A stretch of 64,000 bases of DNA, taken from Acidimicrobiales bacterium (lineage in GTDB: Bacteria; Actinomycetota; Acidimicrobiia; Acidimicrobiales; Acidimicrobilacustridaceae). Shown here piece after piece: positions 7,155 through 64,000 of this stretch (the stretch's first letter is position 1; the number at the start of each line of letters is the position of its first letter). The stretch covers positions 1 to 64,000 of the forward strand of contig JALOLF010000004.1 of NCBI GenBank assembly GCA_025456085.1, read 5' to 3'. The notes beneath the pieces were generated by a model, which was not told the DNA's origin, did not search any database, and was given only the letters and a program-made list of their open reading frames with translations. A program made the position numbers and the translations under genes.

Positions 7155-8918
7155 CTACTTGACGAACTTGAAGTGGGCGGTGTGGGTGATTCCTTCGCCG
7201 AGGTCGAGGTGCACGGTCCGGCAGGTTCCGGCCCAGGCTTTGTCGGTCGTCCAGTTGTACTGGTAGTAGCCGTCACCGAGGTTCTGTAGCCCTGATCCGC
7301 CCGCAGTCGTGGCGTATTCCTCGATGGCGTCCGAGGCTCCGCTGACGCAGTCGACCGGCTTGGATGCCAAGGTGGCCGTGGTGAGGTCGGTGATCGGCGT
7401 TCCGTTGGCGTCGGTGATCTGCCATTTGATGGGGACCACTCGGCCTGCTTTGGCCTGGTTCACCGTCTCGTTGTCAACCGGGGCGGTGAAGAACTGCTGC
7501 TGGTTCGCCTGGTAGAGGACCGTGTACGGGCACGACACCGTGGTCGAGTTGCCGGCCTGGTCTTGCCCGGTGAGCTCGACCGTCTTGGGTCCCACCGAGC
7601 TGGTGTCGGCCGGTTCCGACACGCGAGATGCGAGCGGACCCGACCCTCCGGGCTCGTCGGCCACCGTGGCCCACACCAGAGCTGCTGACTGACTCAGGGC
7701 GAATTGCGGTGCCGGCGTGTCACAGGTCACCGCCGGCGGGGTCGTGTCGCCCCCGGTGGTGTTCAGCCGCACCGACACGGTGGCCCGCTCGGGGTGGGAG
7801 ACGGCCAGGTCAAGGGCCGCGTCGCCGTTCAGGTCGCCCAGTGCCACCCAGGCGGGACGGTCGTCGGTGGCGAAGTCGGTACGGATGTCGGGGTCCGACG
7901 GAATACCGAAGCCTCCAGTTCCGTCGCCCAGGAACACCGACACACTTCGTGCGGTGCCGTTGGCGACGGCGAGGTCGGGGAAGGTGTCGCCGTTGAGGTC
8001 ACCGACCGCGATCCCTGCGGGGTCGGCCATGGCCGGCAGGCCGTAGTCGGCCACGTAGTCGAAGCTGCCGCTGCCGTCGCTGAGCAGCACCGTTGCCGTG
8101 CCCTGGATGTAGTTGGCGAGGGCGACGTCGGGGAGGCTGTCGCCGTTCAGGTCACCCACCGCCATCATGTAGGCACCGCCGTACGGAAGGCGATACCGCT
8201 GTTCGGACCCGAGGCCACCACTCCCGTCGCCGAGGAACACCGACACGGTGCCCCAATGGTCGGTGACCACCAGGTCGGAGACGGTGTCGCCGTTCAGGTC
8301 ACCCACCTCCACACCGGCCGGGCGCCAACCGACGGTGAGGTCGGTCGCAGTGCCGAAGCCGCCCGTTCCGTCGCCGAGCAGCACCGACACCGTGCCCTCG
8401 TAGTAGCTGGTGGCCGCGAGGTCGGGGAAGGTGTCGCCGTTCAGGTCACCGACAGCCACCGCGAACAGGTAGTCGCCGGCCGGGAAGTCGGTCGCTGCGC
8501 CGAAGTTGCCGGTTCCGTCACCGAGCAGCACCGACACCGCGCCCGAACCTTTCGCGACGACGAGGTCGGGGAAGGTGTCGCCGTTCAGGTCAGCCACCTC
8601 CACCCAGGCCGGTCCGCTGACGGCGAAGTTGGTCGCAGCGCCGAAGCTGCCGGTTCCGTCGCCGAGCAGCACCGACACCGCGCCCGAACCGTTCGCGATC
8701 ACCAGGTCGAGGAAGGCGTCGCCGTTCAGATCGGCTGCTGCCCCCCAACCGGGGTTGTCACCAGTGGCGAAATGGGTCTCGGGGCCGAAGGCGACCGGTG
8801 GCCCGTCTGCCTGCACTGCCCTGCTCGGCACCCCCAGCGTCGCCGCCACCAACGCGACCACCCCGGCCATCGAAGCCATGCCCCGATGGCCCTTGCGCTC
8901 ACCACGTGGGCCAGACAT
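7155..8918 (-). CDS. Secreted FG-GAP/VCBS repeat protein with C-terminal PxKF-like domain
   Basis: From ATG 8918 (MSGPRGERKG) a basic start and hydrophobic stretch (MAGVVALVAATLGV) form a signal peptide ending near AVQA. Seven repeats of about 46-50 residues follow, each with a calcium-loop motif of the form D-L-N-G-D-x-x-x-D and an LLGDGTG-type turn, the hallmark of FG-GAP/VCBS beta-propeller blades; seven blades would make a closed propeller. The C-terminal part holds an immunoglobulin-like segment and a region with VPIKWQITDANG that resembles PxKF domains of exported actinobacterial proteins. It is probably an extracellular or cell-surface binding protein. A 28-residue upstream extension to 9002 lacks a signal-peptide shape. 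It is convergent with the 188-aa gene. Confidence 0.85.
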   Translation of the reverse strand: MSGPRGERKGHRGMASMAGVVALVAATLGVPSRAVQADGPPVAFGPETHFATGDNPGWGAAADLNGDAFLDLVIANGSGAVSVLLGDGTGSFGAATNFAVSGPAWVEVADLNGDTFPDLVVAKGSGAVSVLLGDGTGNFGAATDFPAGDYLFAVAVGDLNGDTFPDLAATSYYEGTVSVLLGDGTGGFGTATDLTVGWRPAGVEVGDLNGDTVSDLVVTDHWGTVSVFLGDGSGGLGSEQRYRLPYGGAYMMAVGDLNGDSLPDVALANYIQGTATVLLSDGSGSFDYVADYGLPAMADPAGIAVGDLNGDTFPDLAVANGTARSVSVFLGDGTGGFGIPSDPDIRTDFATDDRPAWVALGDLNGDAALDLAVSHPERATVSVRLNTTGGDTTPPAVTCDTPAPQFALSQSAALVWATVADEPGGSGPLASRVSEPADTSSVGPKTVELTGQDQAGNSTTVSCPYTVLYQANQQQFFTAPVDNETVNQAKAGRVVPIKWQITDANGTPITDLTTATLASKPVDCVSGASDAIEEYATTAGGSGLQNLGDGYYQYNWTTDKAWAGTCRTVHLDLGEGITHTAHFKFVK

Positions 8919-9475
8919 CACGGGCCCTCCGATCTCTCGAACCGCGCCGGAGGGCCAACCTGTCAGCAACCCTGGTTTCGCTCGCACCGAGCCGCCGTGC
9001 AACCTCCGCTCGCAATGGACCCTCTTGCAGCTTCGACTTCATGCTCCGCCGCTCTCGTGCAGGTGTCCAGGGCCGAACTACACGTTCTCGACGCGCCGAC
9101 GACCCCTCGACACGATGTGAGGCTCCACCGGGGCACCACAGGCTCCGTCGGGACCTGGGCCCGGCATCAACAATCAGGACCCTGAACCCCGGGATGCGTG
9201 GAGGCTCGGCTGGTTGGCACCATCGGATGATCTGGCACCTGGGGACGGTCCGACGCGTGCCTCATGCTCCGATACTCGGCCGGGAGGCTCGCACGCAGCG
9301 CTTCTGTCGACGACGCCGTGGCAGGAGATCCAGCTGCCGAAAGGTGACGAAGTGAGACGGGTGGCGCTTTCCGGCCGCCGGTGTTTGCTGGCGTTGAGAT
9401 CGGTGTGCAGACCGACGTGCAGACCGAGGTGAGTCGGTGCAGGCCGTCACGGTGGGGAAGACCGCCGGTCTCCCG
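8919..9475. other. Intergenic region with a GTGCAGAC box pair
   Basis: I see no convincing gene in these 557 bases between the start of the FG-GAP gene and the end of the primase gene. It should hold the FG-GAP promoter. Two direct GTGCAGAC octamers lie at 9405-9412 and 9417-9424 (12-bp period), the same octamer that forms the array at 21562-21746. Confidence 0.5.
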
Positions 9476-20100: not shown

Positions 20101-20711
20101 TCGTCGGCCAGGGCCCACACCACGCTCACCGACTTCGGCGGGCGCAGCGTGAGGTCGTAGCCGGGGCGGGCCTTCGTCGCCCGGCGGGACTCGGCGAACC
20201 GCTCAAGCTCACTGCGTGGGACCAGCCACGCCTCCCCGATCGGACCCTTCGGCCCCGGCACCTTCGTCCCCAGCAGGTACGCGGTTGGCTCTGGGACGAC
20301 CTCGTCGCCACCGGCAGATGTGAGCCGCTGGCGATAGTGCTCTCCCTCGGTCAGCAACCGGCGCAGATAGCGGGCGCTCACCCCGAGGTGGGCGGCAGCA
20401 CGTTCGGTGGGAACCTCGTCGGGCAGGCGGTACGAGACGGTCTCAGGCGCCTCGCTGCGCTTGTTGGCAGCGCGGGCGGCGGAACCCTGGGTGGTGATGA
20501 GCTGCTCGCCGGTGTGGGGGTGGCGGCCCTGCAGCAGACGGCGGAAGTGGGTGGGGTCGACGGCGCCGTCGAGGCCGAGCTCGCGGGCCAGCGACCCGAC
20601 CCACCGGCCCTGACTCTCCCCTCGGCCGGTGTAGTAGTCCTCGGCCGACGTGGCGACGGACTCGATGTAGTACTCGCCCGCTCCCGGGCTCAGCTTGCCG
20701 ATGTTCAACAC
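17151..20711 (-). CDS. MOBF (TrwC/TraI-type) relaxase with C-terminal helicase
   Basis: This 1186-residue conjugative relaxase nicks oriT and unwinds the transferred strand. The N-terminus MLNIGKLSPGAGEYYIESVATSAEDYYTGRG carries the catalytic tyrosine region. GYDLTLRPPKSVSVVWALAD and the HUH-type histidine motif LLHTHVVTANL (about residue 265) complete the relaxase domain. A RecD-like helicase follows with Walker A PVAGRPGAGKT (about 565), VVDEASMLG and VAVTRARH. Unusually, about residues 93-170 hold an insertion with a winged-helix-like segment (ERAAAHLGVSARYLRRLL). A long helical C-terminus may recruit the coupling protein. The start is GTG 20711. It is the last gene of the ParB operon. Confidence 0.95.
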   Translation of the reverse strand: MLNIGKLSPGAGEYYIESVATSAEDYYTGRGESQGRWVGSLARELGLDGAVDPTHFRRLLQGRHPHTGEQLITTQGSAARAANKRSEAPETVSYRLPDEVPTERAAAHLGVSARYLRRLLTEGEHYRQRLTSAGGDEVVPEPTAYLLGTKVPGPKGPIGEAWLVPRSELERFAESRRATKARPGYDLTLRPPKSVSVVWALADDDTRAVIRDAHREAVDEVVRYYETQAVRIRQGSGHRRLVDTAGIVAAAFDHRTSRAGDPLLHTHVVTANLTCTAGADRTDRADGPVQWRAIAGGGLFEHARAAGHLYQAHLRHLLTTRLGVEFTPVVNGWAEIDGVPAEVIQVFSKRREEIEELVAEWGASSGRSAQLATLKSRRAKEYGVEPETLTARWHAEADAAGFGPDQLAACLHRDTRSVELEPDMLFAVLAGPHGLTERSSTFCRTDVIEAIASAAGSVSTASEIEGLADAFLATSHVVPVDRTTPARLPRSLTPRRSTTQHTYTTVELAHLEDAILQWGTSSDPAGTPIPEDVVAHVAGERPELSTEQQAMIHAAATATNLLLPVAGRPGAGKTYATEAVVAAHVVAGVPIIGCAVSAAAAAELEATAGFTRSTGTDATTVARLLHHLSAPTAGLRRGTVIVVDEASMLGTRDLHRLATVAQACGGRVVLVGDPDQHGSVDVGGVFRRLCADRGDQLVTLVENNRQQDHTDRLAIDAYRDGRVDDALATYDTAGKVVRCRTAGECFDAIVADWYAGHLHGEHDPMIAGPNSTRRALNERARTLLKANGELTGAALTVAGREFMVGDQVVARHNNRALHAPGRRDFVKNGSTGVVHALDLDRRQVIVEFTREGRITIPYDYLAAGKLEHGYARTTYGVQGATHGTARYVPTDASSFEGGYVAVTRARHATRIYLVDTTAGHDDPDLTHTPEQPEPFGITDIASALARRRASHMAADLAEHLTAVAATLDTLSLAELTRRRQQLDHRLAAAPAATRQVIGDTEQALDRLRARRHAWHDVLDQTPADEPTVRRATASIGALDRSIDRLDRKLAAAHRQQNAHDQWMADHADLVDEADLLRRAEHARALQARSAALARPPRALLDLIGPEPDSQRDRLTWRRAVEAVGEHHARLDTPPSPSHDPLETLLGPRPADPHLAASHDQARAAIDACLDPAHVQQVAAPELTAGP

Positions 20712-21537
20712 GCCCGACGGTCCTCGTTCGATCGGTGACTGTTCGCCGTGGAAAAGCGCGTCCCGACCGCCGAACGCGACCGGCGATTCGGCCTCGGCCG
20801 GTTCCGCTAGGCGGAACCGGCAAGTCTGTGCCGAACATGATTGGGTTCTGCGGGCTCGATCCGGGGTCCTCGGCCGGGGTCCGGGTGGAGGTGCCGACGG
20901 CGGGTCGAGCGGGGTCGACGAGGGGTCCGGTGGAGGTCGAGGTCGGGTCGTCGTCGGGGTGGTCGGGGTCGGGTGTGGTGGGCAGGAGCGGGGTGAGCCA
21001 GCGGCGCAGCTGGGTGAACTCCCGGAGCTGACGGTGGCGCAGCGTGAGCAGCCCGGCGTCGATGGCTCGGGCCACGCCCGGCGTCACCGTCACGGCCGCC
21101 ACGACGGGCTGTGCGGTCACGTCGGCGACGTCGGAGGGGGTGAGGCTCCGGCCCGGCTCGGCGAGCACCACGACGCCGCTGAAGCGGTCCTGGGAGGTCA
21201 CCAGCGTCCGCAGCCCCAGATAGCACGGGCCTCGCAGCACCACCACGTCGATCCCGTCGTCGGGTCGGTCGGGTGCGGGGCGGTCGGTGCCGTGGTCGTA
21301 GACGGCGATCTCGGCGGTCGGGCCGGGGTGGCGGGTCAGGGTGAGGGTGTCGGACACGGCGACGGTGGGGGCGTCGCCGGGGTCGGCCAGGCCGAGCAGC
21401 GCCGCCATCACGGCCAGGTCGTGCGGGACCAGCTCGGTTCTGGCGTGGTCGGCGGCGGTGAGTGCGAGCACGGCGGCGACGGTGCTGGCCCCGTGGCCGC
21501 CCCGGGCGCCCCACACGTGGATCGACCGGGTGCTCAC
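20443..21537 (-). CDS. ParA/MinD-like protein with degenerate Walker A motif
   Basis: From GTG 21537 the protein starts STRSIHVWGARGGHGASTVAAVLAL, which has the ParA/MinD deviant Walker A layout. Both lysines of the usual KGGxGKS/T are replaced (Arg and Ala), so ATP hydrolysis is doubtful. Downstream strands (TAEIAVYDHG, GIDVVVLRG, SGVVVLAEPG) fit the fold. About 235 residues look protein-like, up to roughly 20830. The frame then stays open to 20443 but becomes an Arg/Pro-rich string overlapping the relaxase by 269 nt, so the true C-terminus is doubtful and a frameshift is possible. It is coupled to the VQT-repeat gene by GTGA overlap. It probably takes part in partition or regulation together with ParB. 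Confidence 0.65.
   Translation of the reverse strand: MSTRSIHVWGARGGHGASTVAAVLALTAADHARTELVPHDLAVMAALLGLADPGDAPTVAVSDTLTLTRHPGPTAEIAVYDHGTDRPAPDRPDDGIDVVVLRGPCYLGLRTLVTSQDRFSGVVVLAEPGRSLTPSDVADVTAQPVVAAVTVTPGVARAIDAGLLTLRHRQLREFTQLRRWLTPLLPTTPDPDHPDDDPTSTSTGPLVDPARPAVGTSTRTPAEDPGSSPQNPIMFGTDLPVPPSGTGRGRIAGRVRRSGRAFPRRTVTDRTRTVGRVEHRQAEPGSGRVLHRVRRHVGRGLLHRPRGESGPVGRVAGPRARPRRRRRPHPLPPSAAGPPPPHRRAAHHHPGFRRPRCQQAQRGA
20745..20780 (-). promoter_or_regulatory. 31-bp fixed-spacing motif, copy C (upstream of relaxase)
   Basis: Read on the minus strand it is GTCGCG, a 12-nt middle starting TTCGG, then GACGCGCTTTTCC, with the same 6+12+13 spacing as the copies at 12396 and 25748. It ends about 33 nt before the relaxase start. 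It lies inside the formal 3' extension of the ParA-like reading frame. Confidence 0.5.
20797..20821. other. Perfect 11-bp inverted repeat upstream of relaxase: candidate oriT
   Basis: The arms GCCGGTTCCGC and GCGGAACCGGC flank a 3-nt TAG spacer. It lies 86 nt upstream of the MOBF relaxase start. Origins of transfer recognised by MOBF relaxases carry such inverted repeats beside the nic site and are commonly next to the relaxase gene. The nic site itself cannot be located by eye. Confidence 0.45.
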
Positions 21538-21860
21538 CGCACCGCTCGACCCGTGGCGGCGGTCTGCACCGTCTGCACGCCGGACTGCATGCTCGTCTGC
21601 ACAACCCGGTTCGAGGTCTGCACAGCTGTCTGCACCGCCGGGGTCGAGGACTGCACCGTGGTCTGCACCACCGGGGTTGGGAGCTGCTTGCTCGTCTGCA
21701 CGTCGGGCCGCACAACGGCGTTCGGGGTCTGCACGGCGGTCTGCACGGGGTGGGTGGTGCCGGGTCGGGTCGGGCCCCCGAGCCCCGACCCGGCACCCGT
21801 CATGGCGTCCCGGCTTCCCCGACCGGGAACCACGAGCTCGACCATCGCCCGCCGGTTCAT
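21534..21860 (-). CDS. Small VQT-repeat protein overlying the GTCTGCAC box array
   Basis: The 108-residue frame starts at ATG 21860 in an ATGA overlap with the upstream 159-aa gene and ends in a GTGA overlap with the ParA-like gene, so its position argues for translation. The N-terminus is MNRRAMVELVVPGRGSRDAM. The C-terminal two thirds consist of low-complexity Val-Gln-Thr repeats with an 11-residue period. The Gln-Thr pairs are encoded by the GTGCAGAC octamer, so the peptide may be a by-product of a DNA repeat array. No fold, signal or membrane segment is visible. Its real role may be to carry the array and couple translation. Confidence 0.5.
   Translation of the reverse strand: MNRRAMVELVVPGRGSRDAMTGAGSGLGGPTRPGTTHPVQTAVQTPNAVVRPDVQTSKQLPTPVVQTTVQSSTPAVQTAVQTSNRVVQTSMQSGVQTVQTAATGRAVR
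21562..21746. repeat. Iteron-like array of GTCTGCAC boxes with 33-bp period
   Basis: Exact GTCTGCAC octamers begin at 21562, 21571, 21595, 21616, 21628, 21661, 21694, 21727 and 21739. Six of them (21562, 21595, 21628, 21661, 21694, 21727) are exactly 33 bp apart. Near-matches begin at 21583 and 21649. The array ends 25 bp from the ParA-like start codon, the kind of place where partition centromeres or iterons lie. Confidence 0.75.
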
Positions 21861-22336
21861 CGCCCCACCGCCGCACATCCGCACCCCTGCTCCACGGGGG
21901 GTTTGGCGGCGTCAAGGGCGTGCCGCTCGGCCAGGTACTCGGGGAGCCGTACCACGTGGCGCTGGGCCAGCGGCGGGAACGCGGTGCGCACCTGGTAGGC
22001 GCCGCCGCCGACGCCGGCCAACCCGAAGTCGGCCAGCCGGGTGAGGGTGCGCACCACGGGGGCGTGGCGGGCGGTGGAGGCGCCGAGGCCGAGGGAGCGG
22101 GCCAGCGCCTCGAGGGGAACCTCGAGGCCGTCGGGTCGCTCCTCCAGCCAGTCCACCAGGCGGCGGGCGGCGAGCACCGCCGACGGGCCCAGCACGACCA
22201 GCCAGTAGGTCTCGACGTAGTCGCTGCGGGGATCGAAGCCGACCTGGTCGTACAGCGGGTCCCGCCAGGCGGTCACCGGCAGCGGGTCGTGCTCGGCGAT
22301 CGAGGCGGCGTGGTCACGGGGGCGGACGGTGCGCAT
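21857..22336 (-). CDS. Hypothetical winged-helix-like protein, 159 aa
   Basis: From ATG 22336, which has AAGGAG 9 nt upstream, the protein reads MRTVRPRDHAASIAEHDPLPVTAWRDP. The core YWLVVLGPSAVLAARRLVDWLEERPDGLEVPLEALARSLGLG, followed by APVVRTLTRLADFGLA, looks like a helical winged-helix DNA-binding domain. The C-terminus ends in a Cys pair (GCGCAAVGR). An in-frame ATG at 22363 adds nine residues. The gene lies between parB and the VQT gene (ATGA overlap at its end), so it may be the DNA-binding adaptor of the partition or regulatory module. Function unknown. Confidence 0.7.
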   Translation of the reverse strand: MRTVRPRDHAASIAEHDPLPVTAWRDPLYDQVGFDPRSDYVETYWLVVLGPSAVLAARRLVDWLEERPDGLEVPLEALARSLGLGASTARHAPVVRTLTRLADFGLAGVGGGAYQVRTAFPPLAQRHVVRLPEYLAERHALDAAKPPVEQGCGCAAVGR

Positions 22337-22363: not shown

Positions 22364-22428
22364 GTTGAACCTGAGTAGTGCAAATGTCACGTTGAATCTG
22401 AGTCGGGGTGTTGACACGTACGTGTCAA
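22364..22428. promoter_or_regulatory. 18-bp perfect palindrome plus two direct repeats downstream of parB
   Basis: TTGACACGTACGTGTCAA (22411-22428) is perfectly palindromic and contains the parB stop codon. GTTGAACCTGAGT (22364-22376) and GTTGAATCTGAGT (22391-22403) form direct repeats 27 bp apart. TTGACA in the palindrome could also be the -35 of a promoter for the 22336 gene. The set is a good candidate for a ParB/regulator binding site. Confidence 0.6.
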
Positions 22429-23594
22429 CCGGCGGCGGTGGGGGTGTCGAGCCCGTAGCTGGTGAGGAACTCGACGTGGCGGGCAGCGACGGTCGTGGTG
22501 GCGCCGTAGCGGGCCTGGTCCTCGCCGATGGCGAAGGCGACCGCCAGCAGCGCCCGGTCCCGGTTGCCGGGCGACTCGGCGGCGTAGGCCTCCACGGCGC
22601 TGCGGTGGTCGGGGCCGTAGGTGCCCTCGACCGGGTCGATCCCCAGCAGGCGGCAGGTGAGCTTGGCGTGGCTAGCCGACAGGTCGCCCACCACCTGGGC
22701 TGCGGCCAACGCCACGATGTCGCCCTTGGGGACCCGGCGGGCCAGCAGGCTGCGGGCGAACTCGATGCGCGCCCGGCTCGCCGCGGTGCGGGCCTTGAAC
22801 TCCGCCCGCTCGACCGCCTGGCGTTCCCCCGCCCGGTCACCCTCCGGTGGCGCGGCCCGCTCGCCGGTCTCGGTGCCCGGTGGCTGCCCGCCGGCTTCGG
22901 CCTCGGGGTCGTCGTCGGCGGTCGACCGGTCAGCGTCGCCGTCGGCATCCCGGTCGGTGTCGCCATCTTTGGCGTCCGGGTCAGGGTCGGGGGTCGTGGT
23001 CCGATCGGCGGCGTCGAGACGGTGCTGGGCTCGCAGGACGGCCCGTTCGATGTCGCGCCGTTCCCATTCGTCGCCCACGATTGCGTCGATCACCTCGGGG
23101 TGGTCCCTCAGACCGAGCAGGGCCTGCCCGTCGGCCACGGTCAACGTCCCGGCGTGCAGCTCCCGCTGGACGGTCTTGGGGAGCTCCAACAAGGCGAGGC
23201 GGGCGGCGACGTGGCGGGCCGACCGGCCGATCCGGGAGGCCAGCTCCCGCTGGGTGAGACCGTGCTCGACGAGACGGAAGTAGCCCGACGCCTCCTCGAT
23301 GGGGCTCAGGTCGCAGCGCTGCAGGTTCTCCACCAGCATGATCTCGACCCGCTCGGCATCGGTGAGCAGGCGGATCGTGCACGGCACCTCCCCCAGCCCG
23401 GCCTTCACCGCCGCGGCGTGGCGGCGATGCCCGGCCACGATCACGTAGCGGTCCCCCTCCACGGGGCTGACCAGCAGCGGTTCCACGATGCCGACCGAAG
23501 CGATGCTGGCGGCCAGGTCCCGCACGTCACCGGTACGGCGGCGCAAGTTGTCCTCAGCCGGGACGACCGAATCGATGGGAAGCAAAGAGAGCAT
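22425..23594 (-). CDS. parB: ParB/Spo0J-family nuclease-domain protein
   Basis: A 389-residue ParB. The N-terminal ParB domain has DSVVPAEDNLRRR, LAASIASVGIVEPLLV and the signature motif VIVAGHRRHAAA (about 50-62), then VENLQRCDLSPIEEASGY. The central helix-turn-helix follows: LTQRELASRIGRSARHVAARLAL. An acidic linker (DPDPDAKDGDTDRDADG) leads to a second helical domain ending AARHVEFLTSYGLD. ATG 23594 was chosen because AAGGA lies upstream and the conserved domain starts there; longer forms to 23693 add Arg-rich noise. It would bind parS-like DNA; a perfect palindrome overlaps its stop codon. It is in an operon with the 96-aa gene upstream and the partition/relaxase genes downstream. Confidence 0.92.
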   Translation of the reverse strand: MLSLLPIDSVVPAEDNLRRRTGDVRDLAASIASVGIVEPLLVSPVEGDRYVIVAGHRRHAAAVKAGLGEVPCTIRLLTDAERVEIMLVENLQRCDLSPIEEASGYFRLVEHGLTQRELASRIGRSARHVAARLALLELPKTVQRELHAGTLTVADGQALLGLRDHPEVIDAIVGDEWERRDIERAVLRAQHRLDAADRTTTPDPDPDAKDGDTDRDADGDADRSTADDDPEAEAGGQPPGTETGERAAPPEGDRAGERQAVERAEFKARTAASRARIEFARSLLARRVPKGDIVALAAAQVVGDLSASHAKLTCRLLGIDPVEGTYGPDHRSAVEAYAAESPGNRDRALLAVAFAIGEDQARYGATTTVAARHVEFLTSYGLDTPTAAG

Positions 23595-23605
23595 CAGGGG
23601 TCCTT

Positions 23606-23896
23606 TCAGCCGTGCTCGTCGAGCAGGCGGGCGCAACGGTCGGGCCACGACGCCGGCCCGCAAGGCGTCACCCGGAACCCGCCCTCCGCCCAACGCACGG
23701 CGGCGACGGTCCCGTCGAACGACACGATCTCCACCCCATGGCCCGCCACCACCGCCGCCCGGGCCTGCGCCGTGGCCAGCGACAAGCTCGCCACCACCGG
23801 CCCCAACGCCCCGCCATCGATCCGCAGCCGGAACCGCACCGGCCCGTCACCCATGGTCGGGAACAGGCGAGGCTGGCCCCACACGGCCGTGCTCAT
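23606..23896 (-). CDS. Hypothetical protein, 96 aa, first gene of the ParB operon
   Basis: From ATG 23896 (GGGAG about 7 nt upstream) the protein reads MSTAVWGQPRLFPTMGDGPVRFRLRIDG, then an alanine-rich helix (VASLSLATAQARAAVVAG) and VEIVSFDGTVAAVRWAEGGFRVTPCG. It looks like a small alpha/beta protein; the family is not recognised. It ends 11 nt before the parB start, so the two are co-transcribed. The upstream extension to 24016 has no ribosome site. Confidence 0.65.
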   Translation of the reverse strand: MSTAVWGQPRLFPTMGDGPVRFRLRIDGGALGPVVASLSLATAQARAAVVAGHGVEIVSFDGTVAAVRWAEGGFRVTPCGPASWPDRCARLLDEHG

Positions 23897-26070: not shown

Positions 26071-27270
26071 ATGCGCGGCCACATCGCGAAGAAGCACGAC
26101 CGCTACTACGTCGTGCTCGAACACGGCATCGACCCCAGCACCGGGAAGCGTCGCCGGACCTGGCACCCCGTCGGGACCAAGAGACGAGAAGCCGAACAGG
26201 CCCTCGCCGAGCTGCTCGAGCAGAAGCGCACCGAGACCTACGTCGAACCACGCAAGCTGACCGTCGCCCAGTACCTGGTCGACGAGTGGCTCCCCGTCGC
26301 CAAGCACGAGCTGCGGCTGAGCACGTTCGACTCCTACCAGCGCAACACGCGTCTGCACGTCGTTCCCGGTATCGGGCGGATCGGCCTCCAGCGGCTGCGG
26401 CCCCTCGACCTGACCAAGTTCTACGCCCAGCTCCTGGCCACGGGCCGCAGGGACGGAAAGGGTGGGCTCAGCCCCAAGACGGTCCAGAACATCCACCAGA
26501 TGATCCGCAAGGCGCTCGAGGACGCCGTGCAGCACAACTACGTCGTCCGCAACGTGGCCGCCGCCGCCAAGGTCCCCAAGGCCGGGAAGGCCGCAACAGA
26601 CGAGATGCACGTCTGGACCGGGGAGGAACTGCGGAGCTTCCTCAGCGCGAACCGAGACTGCGTCCACTGGTCGGCGTGGTACCTCGCTGCCAACACCGGG
26701 ATGCGCCGCGGCGAGATCCTCGGCCTGCGCTGGCGCGACGTCGACCTCGACGCCGCCCGGATCTCCGTGCGCCAAGCCATCATCAACGTCGCCTACAAGG
26801 TCCACCGCTCCGACGTGAAGACCCAGCGCAGCCAACGCGTCGTCGACATCAACTCCAGAACCGTCGCCGTGCTGCGCCGCCAACTCGGCGTCGTCCAGGG
26901 CTACCGGGCGGCGCTCGGCGACACCTACCAGGACCACGACCTCGTGTTCGCGAAGCCCGATGGCTCCCCCGTCCACCCCGACACGTTCAGCAAGGCCTTC
27001 GACCGCCGGGTCGCCAAGACGTCTGTACCCGTCATCCGTCTCCACGACTTGCGCCATACGCACGCCACCCTGCTCCTGCTGGCCGGCGTGCCACCCAAGG
27101 TCGTGTCCGAACGACTCGGCCACGCCACCGTCGCGTTCACCATGCAGGTCTACGCCCACGTCATCCCCGGCATGCAGGCCGACGCTGCCGCCGCCTTCGG
27201 TGACTTCGTGTTCGGCGACGACGACGAGGGCGACGACACCGACGAAGAGGTGCACGATGATGAGGAGTAG
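26071..27270 (+). CDS. int: Tyrosine recombinase/integrase
   Basis: A 399-residue phage-type integrase. It has an N-terminal arm-binding segment (GKRRRTWHPVGTKRREAEQ), a SAM-like core-binding domain (TVAQYLVDEWLP to RKALEDAV) and a catalytic domain with Arg212 (NTGMRRGE), His325-x-x-Arg328 (HDLRHTH), LGHAT and the nucleophile Tyr361 (MQVYAHV). All catalytic residues are present, so it should be active. An acidic tail (DDDEGDDTDEE) closes the protein. It follows the excisionase. The likely target is the initiator tRNA gene 4 kb downstream, with cargo genes between. Confidence 0.95.
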   Translation: MRGHIAKKHDRYYVVLEHGIDPSTGKRRRTWHPVGTKRREAEQALAELLEQKRTETYVEPRKLTVAQYLVDEWLPVAKHELRLSTFDSYQRNTRLHVVPGIGRIGLQRLRPLDLTKFYAQLLATGRRDGKGGLSPKTVQNIHQMIRKALEDAVQHNYVVRNVAAAAKVPKAGKAATDEMHVWTGEELRSFLSANRDCVHWSAWYLAANTGMRRGEILGLRWRDVDLDAARISVRQAIINVAYKVHRSDVKTQRSQRVVDINSRTVAVLRRQLGVVQGYRAALGDTYQDHDLVFAKPDGSPVHPDTFSKAFDRRVAKTSVPVIRLHDLRHTHATLLLLAGVPPKVVSERLGHATVAFTMQVYAHVIPGMQADAAAAFGDFVFGDDDEGDDTDEEVHDDEE

Positions 27271-62600: not shown

Positions 62601-64000
62601 TCAGTGCGGCCCGCCGTCGACGGTGCGACGGCGGCGGTCGGCCCGACGGGCGGCGGCGGACCCACCCGGCGACAACTCCACGGTCGGGGCATCCAGCGGC
62701 GAGGAGCCCGGGATCGCCACACCCGGCGGCAGCTCCACCGTCGGGGCATCCAGCGGCGCCACCCCCGGAACGGCCACACCCGGCGGCAGCTCCACCGTCG
62801 GGGCATCCAGCGGCGAGGAGCCCGGGATCGCCACACCCGGCGGCAGCTCCACCGTCGGCGTGTCCAGCAGCGACGAGCCGGTCACACCGGCGTCGACGGC
62901 CGGGGCGGCAGAGAGCGCCTCGAAGCCGGGCAACGGTGGCGTCTCCACCGTGCGCCAGGCCGGCTCCGGATAGGTGAACGGCGCTGCGCCCGGTGTGGCC
63001 AACCGCAGGTCGCCGGCCGCGACATCCACGGTGCGCACGCCCTCACCGGGACCGAAGTCGAGCGGCTCCTGCCCGAGATCGATGACCGCCTCAGCCGGCT
63101 CGGGGACCGGCGGTGCCGGCTCCGGATGGTCCTCGGCGACTGCGCGCTCGCCGTCGAACAGCACCGACCCCGACGGCTCGGCGCGCTCGGGCTCCACGGG
63201 AGTCGGCTCGACCGGGTCGAAGATGCCGGCGGGCTCCGGCGTGAGCAGGGTCGACGGGAGCGGCTCGTCGGCGAGGCCGAGCAGCCCCGGCGACGCCGTG
63301 ACGGGCCCCGCTGCGCCGTGCTCGTCGGCCGCCACGCCGGCGGTGGATCCCGCCCCGGTCGGTCCCACGAACGCCTCGGACGTGGCCTCGGGTCGCGCCA
63401 CGACAGGCGCGTCGTCGTCCGGGATCTCGGGCGCAGGGACCTCGGACCGGGTCAGGCCGGGTTCGGGCACGTCGAGCGGGGGCGGGCCGTGGCCATCGGG
63501 CAGCACGAGCGTGGCGTCCGTCGGCTCCCAGGCGTCGCCGGCCACGGGCACCGCTCCCGGGTCGAGGGCGGTCTCCTCGCCGGACGAGCGGCGCGCCCAC
63601 AACCGACGCCGGGGCAGGCTCGGCTCGGGCAGGAGCTGGGGTCGGGGTTGGCGCTGCCGACGAGCGTCGTCGTCGATGCGGCGCATGCCGAGGTCGTAGG
63701 AGACGAGCGCGCCGCCGGCCACCACCGCCACGAACACGAAGCCCACCTCCAGAGGCGGACGCAGCGCCACGGGGATGAGCGCGCCGAGCACCCACACGAG
63801 CTGGAAGCGGGTCTCGAAGCGGGCGAAGGAGCGACCCCGGTTGGCGTCGGGAGCGTCACGCTGCACGAGCGAATCGAAGGACTGCTTGGCGATGTTGGAG
63901 GAGACCCCGGCGCCGAGAGCGACCAGCGCCGCACCCCACAGGCCTCCCATCAGCGCGGTCAGGACCCCCGTCACGGCGAGCACGCCGAGCGCCACCATGA
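62601..64000 (-). CDS. MFS-like membrane transporter, 3' part (cut by right edge)
   Basis: The visible 465 residues begin at an ATG two bases inside the right edge, but the sequence there is mid-protein: three to four hydrophobic spans (VALGVLAVTGVLTALMGGLWGAALVALGAG; FQLVWVLGALIPVALRPPLEVGFVFVAVVAGGALVSYDLGM) with an intervening AKQSFDSLVQRDAPDANRGRSFARFETRF loop typical of MFS-type transporters. A long Pro/Glu-rich cytoplasmic tail of about 330 residues follows, ending with four copies of a 19-residue repeat (PLDAPTVELPPGVAIPGSS). The start lies beyond the window. Confidence 0.75.
   Translation of the reverse strand, partial: MVALGVLAVTGVLTALMGGLWGAALVALGAGVSSNIAKQSFDSLVQRDAPDANRGRSFARFETRFQLVWVLGALIPVALRPPLEVGFVFVAVVAGGALVSYDLGMRRIDDDARRQRQPRPQLLPEPSLPRRRLWARRSSGEETALDPGAVPVAGDAWEPTDATLVLPDGHGPPPLDVPEPGLTRSEVPAPEIPDDDAPVVARPEATSEAFVGPTGAGSTAGVAADEHGAAGPVTASPGLLGLADEPLPSTLLTPEPAGIFDPVEPTPVEPERAEPSGSVLFDGERAVAEDHPEPAPPVPEPAEAVIDLGQEPLDFGPGEGVRTVDVAAGDLRLATPGAAPFTYPEPAWRTVETPPLPGFEALSAAPAVDAGVTGSSLLDTPTVELPPGVAIPGSSPLDAPTVELPPGVAVPGVAPLDAPTVELPPGVAIPGSSPLDAPTVELSPGGSAAARRADRRRRTVDGGPH
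62682..62852. repeat. Three exact-length 57-bp tandem repeats
   Basis: Units begin at 62682, 62739 and 62796, with partial copies on both sides. The first and third units are identical over most of their length. They encode the 19-residue repeat at the C-terminus of the MFS-like protein and keep the frame. Confidence 0.85.

What the first reader, a model, noticed from the sequence alone, without database searches (positions are those of the whole stretch)
21534..21746. 33-bp-period GTCTGCAC iteron array hidden in a VQT-repeat frame, next to a ParA-like gene
Nine exact GTCTGCAC octamers lie within 185 bp, and six of them are exactly 33 bp apart (21562, 21595, 21628, 21661, 21694, 21727). The array ends 25 bp before the start of a ParA-like gene whose operon also contains parB. 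Regularly spaced direct repeats beside partition genes are the form taken by plasmid centromeres and replication iterons. The overlying 108-aa frame is almost pure Val-Gln-Thr repeat, so selection may act on the DNA rather than on the peptide.
Basis: partly seen in the sequence, partly recalled or inferred. Interest (0 to 1): 0.8.

Follow-up and report, generated by a model that had tools for sequence, protein, structure and literature searches.

The report
oriT-linked GTGCAGAC repeats inside VQT gene
A row of nine identical 8-base words lies inside a small gene (its protein repeats Val-Gln-Thr), and because the same word also forms short clusters in non-coding DNA next to DNA-transfer origins of other mobile elements in the same genome, it is probably both a coding repeat and a DNA-level signal used when these elements are mobilised.

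Summary
The array is real: nine exact GTCTGCAC in 185 bp, six at 33-bp steps. Read on the minus strand it is GTGCAGAC, codons V-Q-T, in a 108-aa ORF (21860-21534) whose start and stop overlap its neighbours by 4 nt and whose GC3 (0.90) matches them: very probably a real gene. That alone would make the array an ordinary peptide repeat. However, the octamer also recurs at non-coding places in the same genome, at codon-incompatible 13-bp spacing and in both orientations. In two homologous integrative elements the octamers are kept while the spacers diverge, 150-190 bp from an orphan oriT like the window's oriT at 20798-20830. The closest relative (L270) has three octamers at the same place, again in a VQT frame; other relatives have none. 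So a DNA-level motif is supported; a ParB centromere or replication iteron is not: L270 has no parB beside its octamers, the 33-bp period is not conserved, and a conserved palindrome (22410-22429) is the better operator/centromere candidate. Best reading: oriT-associated accessory sites of a MobF mobilisation module, overlapped by a coupled VQT-repeat ORF. What binds them is unknown.

The parts
21562..21746 (-). GTGCAGAC array: nine exact copies (GTCTGCAC on +), pitch 33 bp with 12/21 and 9/24 sub-spacings, all in one codon phase (V-Q-T)
21534..21860 (-). VQT-repeat ORF, 108 aa; ATG overlaps the wHTH stop (ATGA) and its TGA overlaps the ParA-like GTG (GTGA); C-terminal half predicted helical at low confidence
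   Evidence: GC3 0.90 in array; AF2 mean pLDDT 59, helix 73-103
20809..21537 (-). ParA-like gene (deviant P-loop GARGGHGAST, no P-loop Lys); the frame stays open to 20443, true end not settled
   Evidence: (TIGR03815 Ssd E=4.7e-8, below cut-off)
20798..20830 (+). predicted oriT: hairpin GGTTCCGC-TAG-GCGGAACC followed by GGCAAGTCTGTG, upstream of mobF; near-identical orphan copies in the same genome
17151..20711 (-). MobF relaxase-helicase
   Evidence: TrwC 2.8e-80; NF041492 MobF 6.2e-75
21857..22336 (-). small predicted winged-helix protein, first gene of the conserved wHTH/ParA-like module
   Evidence: (weak HTH hit only)
22410..22429 (.). perfect palindrome GTTGACACGTACGTGTCAAC; TTGAC-N8-GTCAA found upstream of wHTH in every relative that carries wHTH plus ParA-like
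21800..21835 (-). hairpin with loop TCGGGGAAG in the wHTH-ParA spacer, conserved with differing stems in 7 relatives
21756..21797 (-). perfect 14-bp inverted repeat directly upstream of the array, inside the VQT ORF
   Evidence: -39 kcal/mol, z -3.6
22425..23693 (-). ParB-family gene (start uncertain)
9405..9424 (+). second octamer doublet GTGCAGACCGACGTGCAGAC, beside a Toprim primase-like gene (10552-9476)

Best explanation
The octamer GTGCAGAC is a nucleotide-level repeated site of a family of MobF integrative/mobilisable elements, clustered near oriT, most likely a binding site of a relaxosome or mobilisation accessory factor. In the window these sites are embedded in, and frame-locked by, a small translationally coupled ORF (VQT protein) between a winged-helix gene and a ParA-like gene in the operon that continues into the relaxase. 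Relaxase-less elements in the same genome carry the same oriT with octamer clusters, as if copying the helper's mobilisation signals. SHOWN: array, ORF, overlaps, GC3, recurrence of octamer clusters, association with oriT-like sites, conservation in L270. INFERRED: that the hairpin plus GGCAAGTCTGTG is oriT; that a protein binds the octamer; that the VQT protein is made; mobilisation in trans.
For: Own genome: octamer pairs no more than 39 bp apart at seven loci, 19 hits, 0 for the reversed control; about 0.7 expected by chance. Triples in only 5 of 298 genomes of the order, with 4 loci in this genome; the other four genomes have one locus each, with short regular repeat units. Clusters at C109:10767-10830 and C257:12467-12532 have 13/30/13 and 13/32/13 spacing, which no single reading frame can explain; they share a 27-bp identical doublet and oriT flank while the spacers differ. 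C109:5884-5958 has three direct and one inverted copy between int and an excisionase-like gene. Four of seven pair loci lie within 1 kb of one of the four oriT cores (P about 3e-10; 3e-5 with related loci merged). L270/L269: three octamers in the same spacer, VQT frame, stop overlapping the ParA-like ATG, oriT variant about 740 bp away. Thr wobble varies (C/G/A) while Val and Gln wobbles never do in 12 copies.
Against: No binding protein identified. Geometry differs: 150-190 bp 5' of the oriT hairpin in the orphan elements, about 730 bp on the other side and inverted in the window. Most relatives of the module (L267, L268, L272-L276) have no exact octamers. One cluster in the second MAG lies in a Tad-like locus with no oriT found, and C109 c1 is 2.3 kb from an oriT. 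The two oriT-adjacent clusters are homologous, so not independent. The genome is a fragmented MAG (279 contigs, 2.8% contamination), so the contigs may not share a cell. Chance estimates assume random placement, but mobile-element DNA is not random.
Confidence: 0.45

Rival explanations
1. Purely a peptide repeat: the VQT protein has an 11-residue amphipathic repeat expanded by tandem duplication; GTGCAGAC is just the usual spelling of V-Q-T in a GC-rich genome.
For: All nine octamers in one frame; GC3 0.90 in the array and 0.87 in the spacers alone (P=0.004); 4-nt overlaps at both ends here and in L270; among phage contigs octamer triples are mostly coding repeats (115 of 132 in phase), and two phage proteins with long repeat ORFs show the same 12/21/33 VQT spacing.
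Against: Octamer clusters recur in the same genome with 13-bp spacing and both orientations, outside any consistent frame, near oriT. Val codon is always GTG in the VQT units although GTC is as common in neighbouring genes.
Confidence: 0.28
2. One reading: partition centromere (parS-like) or replication iterons bound by the element's ParB or ParA-like protein.
For: Regular spacing beside a ParA-like gene in an operon with parB; a doublet also sits beside a primase-like gene.
Against: parB is not next to the module in L270, L268, L272-L275, yet L270 keeps the octamers. L267 and L276 have parB but no octamers. The palindrome is present in all of them. The ParA-like protein lacks the P-loop Lys. 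The 33-bp pitch is not conserved.
Confidence: 0.08
3. Operator sites of a transcriptional regulator (for example an excisionase-like HTH or sigma-linked regulator) shared by several mobile elements, unrelated to oriT as such.
For: Clusters lie upstream of an excisionase-like gene (C109 c1), of a sigma-factor-like gene (second MAG) and of the ParA-like gene.
Against: In C257 the cluster is downstream of the HTH gene and 190 bp from oriT; four of seven loci lie within 1 kb of oriT.
Confidence: 0.12
4. Neutral minisatellite-like expansion with no function of either DNA or peptide.
For: Repeat number differs strongly between relatives (9, 3, 0) and most lack it.
Against: Frame kept, coding-like GC3, octamer kept while spacers diverge in two unlinked elements.
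Confidence: 0.07

Closest known systems
pWBG749-family oriT with accessory factor SmpO and oriT mimics (Staphylococcus; PMC8136818, PMC4652767)
   Same: A relaxasome accessory protein binds short sites in the oriT region, and relaxase-less elements carry mimics of the helper's oriT.
   Different: MobF-type here, actinobacterial integrative elements, octamer arrays further from nic and one of them inside a coding sequence; binding protein unknown.
VirC1/VirC2 and overdrive (Agrobacterium; described in PMC4949242)
   Same: A ParA-like protein encoded beside transfer genes, acting with a second factor at a sequence next to an oriT-like site.
   Different: No sequence test of relation made; the ParA-like protein here lacks the P-loop lysine; no binding shown.
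RepA_N plasmids with origin iterons inside the rep coding sequence (pLS32, pSK41; from memory)
   Same: Direct-repeat DNA sites lying within a reading frame.
   Different: No Rep gene here; the repeat ORF is tiny and of unknown function.
Phage proteins with 11-residue repeats (L072, L180; tape-measure-like, named from memory)
   Same: Same VQT spacing of 4, 7 and 11 residues.
   Different: Those are parts of very long phage ORFs; this is a 108-aa ORF of a mobilisable element; no homology shown.

Membership tests
Plasmid centromere (parS/parC) or replication iterons | Array conserved together with its cognate ParB/Rep gene in related elements | tested here: not met
   L270 has octamers but no parB in its flanks; L267 and L276 have parB but no octamers
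Plasmid centromere (parS/parC) or replication iterons | Regular spacing conserved in relatives | tested here: not met
   33 bp here, 12 bp in L270, 13/30-32/13 in C109 and C257
Plasmid centromere (parS/parC) or replication iterons | Specific binding by ParB/Rep | not testable with these tools
   needs EMSA or ChIP
oriT-associated accessory sites (SmpO/TrwA/TraY type) | Clusters lie close to oriT more often than chance | tested here: met
   4 of 7 pair loci within 1 kb of four oriT cores; homologous loci counted, conservative P 3e-5
oriT-associated accessory sites (SmpO/TrwA/TraY type) | Site sequence conserved while surroundings diverge | tested here: met
   C109 c2 against C257 comparison
oriT-associated accessory sites (SmpO/TrwA/TraY type) | Fixed position relative to nic and present across the element family | tested here: not met
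   150-190 bp on one side against about 730 bp on the other; absent in most relatives
oriT-associated accessory sites (SmpO/TrwA/TraY type) | Bound by an element-encoded accessory protein | not testable with these tools
   no candidate tested
MobF oriT (site at 20798-20830) | Hairpin plus conserved nic-side sequence upstream of a MobF gene in relatives | tested here: met
   L261, L263, L276 and, as a variant, L269; nicking itself untested
Translated gene (VQT ORF) | Coding-like codon-position composition and conserved coupling to neighbours | tested here: met
   GC3 0.90, ATGA/GTGA overlaps; L270 has GTGA/ATGA overlaps; L270 ORF GC3 only 0.74
ParA/MinD ATPase | Deviant Walker A with lysines (KGGxGKT) | tested here: not met
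   GARGGHGAST and relatives GxxGG[HQ]G[TA][ST]T; only a sub-threshold TIGR03815 match

The most novel reading that the evidence does not exclude
A dual-use sequence: a mobilisation-region binding array (GTGCAGAC) of an uncharacterised MobF helper element has been captured into, and frame-locked by, a translationally coupled repeat protein, while relaxase-less hitchers in the same genome copied both the oriT and the octamer sites.
Probability: 0.33. Interest if true: 0.65.

Novelty: new variant of a known kind. Interest (0 to 1): 0.5.

Why it matters
Helper/hitcher conjugation in Acidimicrobiia-type actinobacteria appears little described (one literature query found no dedicated study). A shared octamer and oriT give a concrete, testable signal for which orphan elements a MobF element can mobilise, and a case where a DNA signal and a peptide repeat constrain the same bases.

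Tried and rejected
VQT homologues by tblastn in plasmids, viral contigs, and by family in Pfam, NCBIfam and PHROGs: none. Weak hits in related genomes were low-complexity matches, not VQT repeats. A phage-contig VQT match (L073) turned out to be Gly-Leu-Asp repeats of an FtsK-like protein on the other strand. The GAD frame in phase with ParA-like was rejected (third-position GC outside the VQT frame only 0.54-0.68). Uptake-sequence idea rejected: octamers outside the array are only slightly above chance in the window. Integrase arm-site idea kept only as possible for C109 c1: the window array is 4.3 kb from its int. Rfam found nothing credible in the region. The Iamia plasmids with a wHTH relative carry neither palindrome nor octamer in the stretch read. 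The AF2 model was too weak (pLDDT 59) for a fold search.

Full report
OBSERVATION. The nine exact GTCTGCAC octamers are at the stated places, six of them 33 bp apart; the window has 15 copies against 3.7 expected. All nine share one codon phase; the 9- and 12-bp sub-spacings do not fit a helical lattice.

CODING. On the minus strand the octamer is GTG CAG AC = V-Q-T. The frame runs from ATG 21860, overlapping the stop of the upstream winged-helix gene (ATGA), to TGA 21534, overlapping the GTG of the ParA-like gene (GTGA). GC at codon positions 1-3 in the array is 0.68/0.53/0.90, close to the neighbours at positions 2 and 3; the other two frames have third-position GC of 0.68 and 0.54. Spacers alone, octamers removed, still show GC3 0.87 (P=0.004). 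So a translated, coupled small ORF is very likely. A single-sequence AF2 model is poor (pLDDT 59) but makes the last repeats helical. No family match.

THE OPERON. parB - wHTH - VQT - ParA-like - oriT - mobF. The ParA-like protein has GARGGHGAST in place of KGGVGKT, and the P-loop lysine is missing in all seven aligned sequences. An integrase (26071-27270) and an excisionase-like gene lie nearby, so this is probably an integrative element.

RELATIVES. Scans of 397 genomes of the order and of 84,980 species gave about nine further elements with wHTH and/or ParA-like. TTGAC-N8-GTCAA lies upstream of wHTH in every one where both genes and the upstream DNA are held, and in none of the loci with wHTH alone and no ParA-like gene. 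A hairpin with loop TCGGGGAAG (TCGAGGAAG in L272) sits in the wHTH-ParA spacer of most. The octamer is found in only one pair, L270/L269 from one MAG: three copies at 12-bp spacing in the same spacer, in a VQT frame that begins with a GTGA overlap and ends with an ATGA overlap. L270 is also close in its integrase (64%), and has no parB in its flanks. The other relatives have none.

DNA LEVEL. Searching the window's own genome for octamer pairs gave 19 hits at seven loci, with 0 for the reversed control. Outside the array: C109:5884-5958 (three direct, one inverted, between int and an excisionase-like gene), C109:10767-10830 and C257:12467-12532 (four each, spacing 13/30/13 and 13/32/13), C274:8689, window 9405, and a pair inside mobF (19854). 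A 13-bp spacing cannot be a peptide repeat in one frame. The two four-octamer clusters belong to homologous elements: a 27-bp doublet is identical, the inter-doublet spacers differ, and both stand 150-190 bp 5' of a hairpin plus GGCAAGTCTGTG. That hairpin plus core is the sequence just upstream of mobF in the window and in L261, L263 and L276 (variant in L269/L270): a predicted oriT. The genome has exactly four exact cores, three without a relaxase beside them in the stretches read. Four of seven pair loci lie within 1 kb of one (P about 3e-10, or 3e-5 when related loci are merged; both assume random placement). The second MAG has a further 13/13 cluster upstream of a sigma-like gene, with no oriT found. 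In 298 genomes of the order only five have any triple cluster, so this is not a general genomic motif. Codon choice agrees: 9 of 9 VQT use GTG although GTC is as common in the operon; the peptide with operon codon usage gives a mean of 4.0 octamers (P of 9 = 0.001, an over-statement because copies share ancestry).

COUNTER-EVIDENCE FROM PHAGES. Octamer triples are common in phage contigs, but 115 of 132 clusters are in phase and mostly pentapeptide or collagen-like repeats. So an octamer array alone is no evidence of binding; the off-frame, oriT-linked clusters are.

MECHANISM. Best supported: the octamer is a repeated DNA site of the mobilisation region of this MobF element family, probably bound by an accessory factor, and relaxase-less elements carry matching oriT plus octamers, as pWBG749-type oriT mimics carry sites for SmpO (PMC8136818; hitchers reviewed in PMC11389934). 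A ParA-like protein helping relaxosome assembly has a precedent in VirC1 with overdrive (PMC4949242). In the window the array is additionally held in frame by the VQT ORF. Binding, oriT function and translation are inferred, not shown.

CAVEATS. Fragmented MAG; two clusters homologous; geometry relative to oriT not conserved; few relatives; binder unknown.

Noticed in passing
22410-22429: Perfect 20-bp palindrome GTTGACACGTACGTGTCAAC overlapping the parB stop; TTGAC-N8-GTCAA is found upstream of wHTH in every relative with wHTH plus ParA-like whose upstream DNA is held, in none of the loci with wHTH alone. Likely operator or parS-like site.
   Followed up: partly
21800-21835 and L268, L270, L272-L276: Hairpin with conserved loop TCGGGGAAG and different stems in the spacer after wHTH (in L274 before an SSB gene); no Rfam match at the window copy.
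   Followed up: partly
L311 8298 and 10584, L312 10247 (own genome C109, C257): Three orphan oriT-like sites nearly identical to the window's, one with a compensated stem change (GGTTGCGC/GCGCAACC), in integrative elements without a relaxase beside them.
   Followed up: partly
9405-9424: Octamer doublet beside a Toprim/DnaG-zinc-ribbon primase-like gene (10552-9476).
   Followed up: no
L313 9916-9949: Three GTGCAGAC at 13-bp spacing upstream of a sigma-factor-like gene in what looks like a Tad-type locus of the second MAG.
   Followed up: no
order-wide, 324 of 397 genomes: wHTH relatives occur in most genomes of the order, usually one copy and in a longer ORF; function unknown.
   Followed up: no
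20443-20809: The ParA-like frame runs on through the oriT and over the mobF start; its true 3' end is unclear.
   Followed up: no
62663-62879: 57-bp tandem repeat, 3.8 copies, 86% matches.
   Followed up: no
8224-8729: 147-bp tandem repeat inside a 615-aa ORF with repeated GDLNGD motifs (7155-9002, minus), FG-GAP-like by eye.
   Followed up: no
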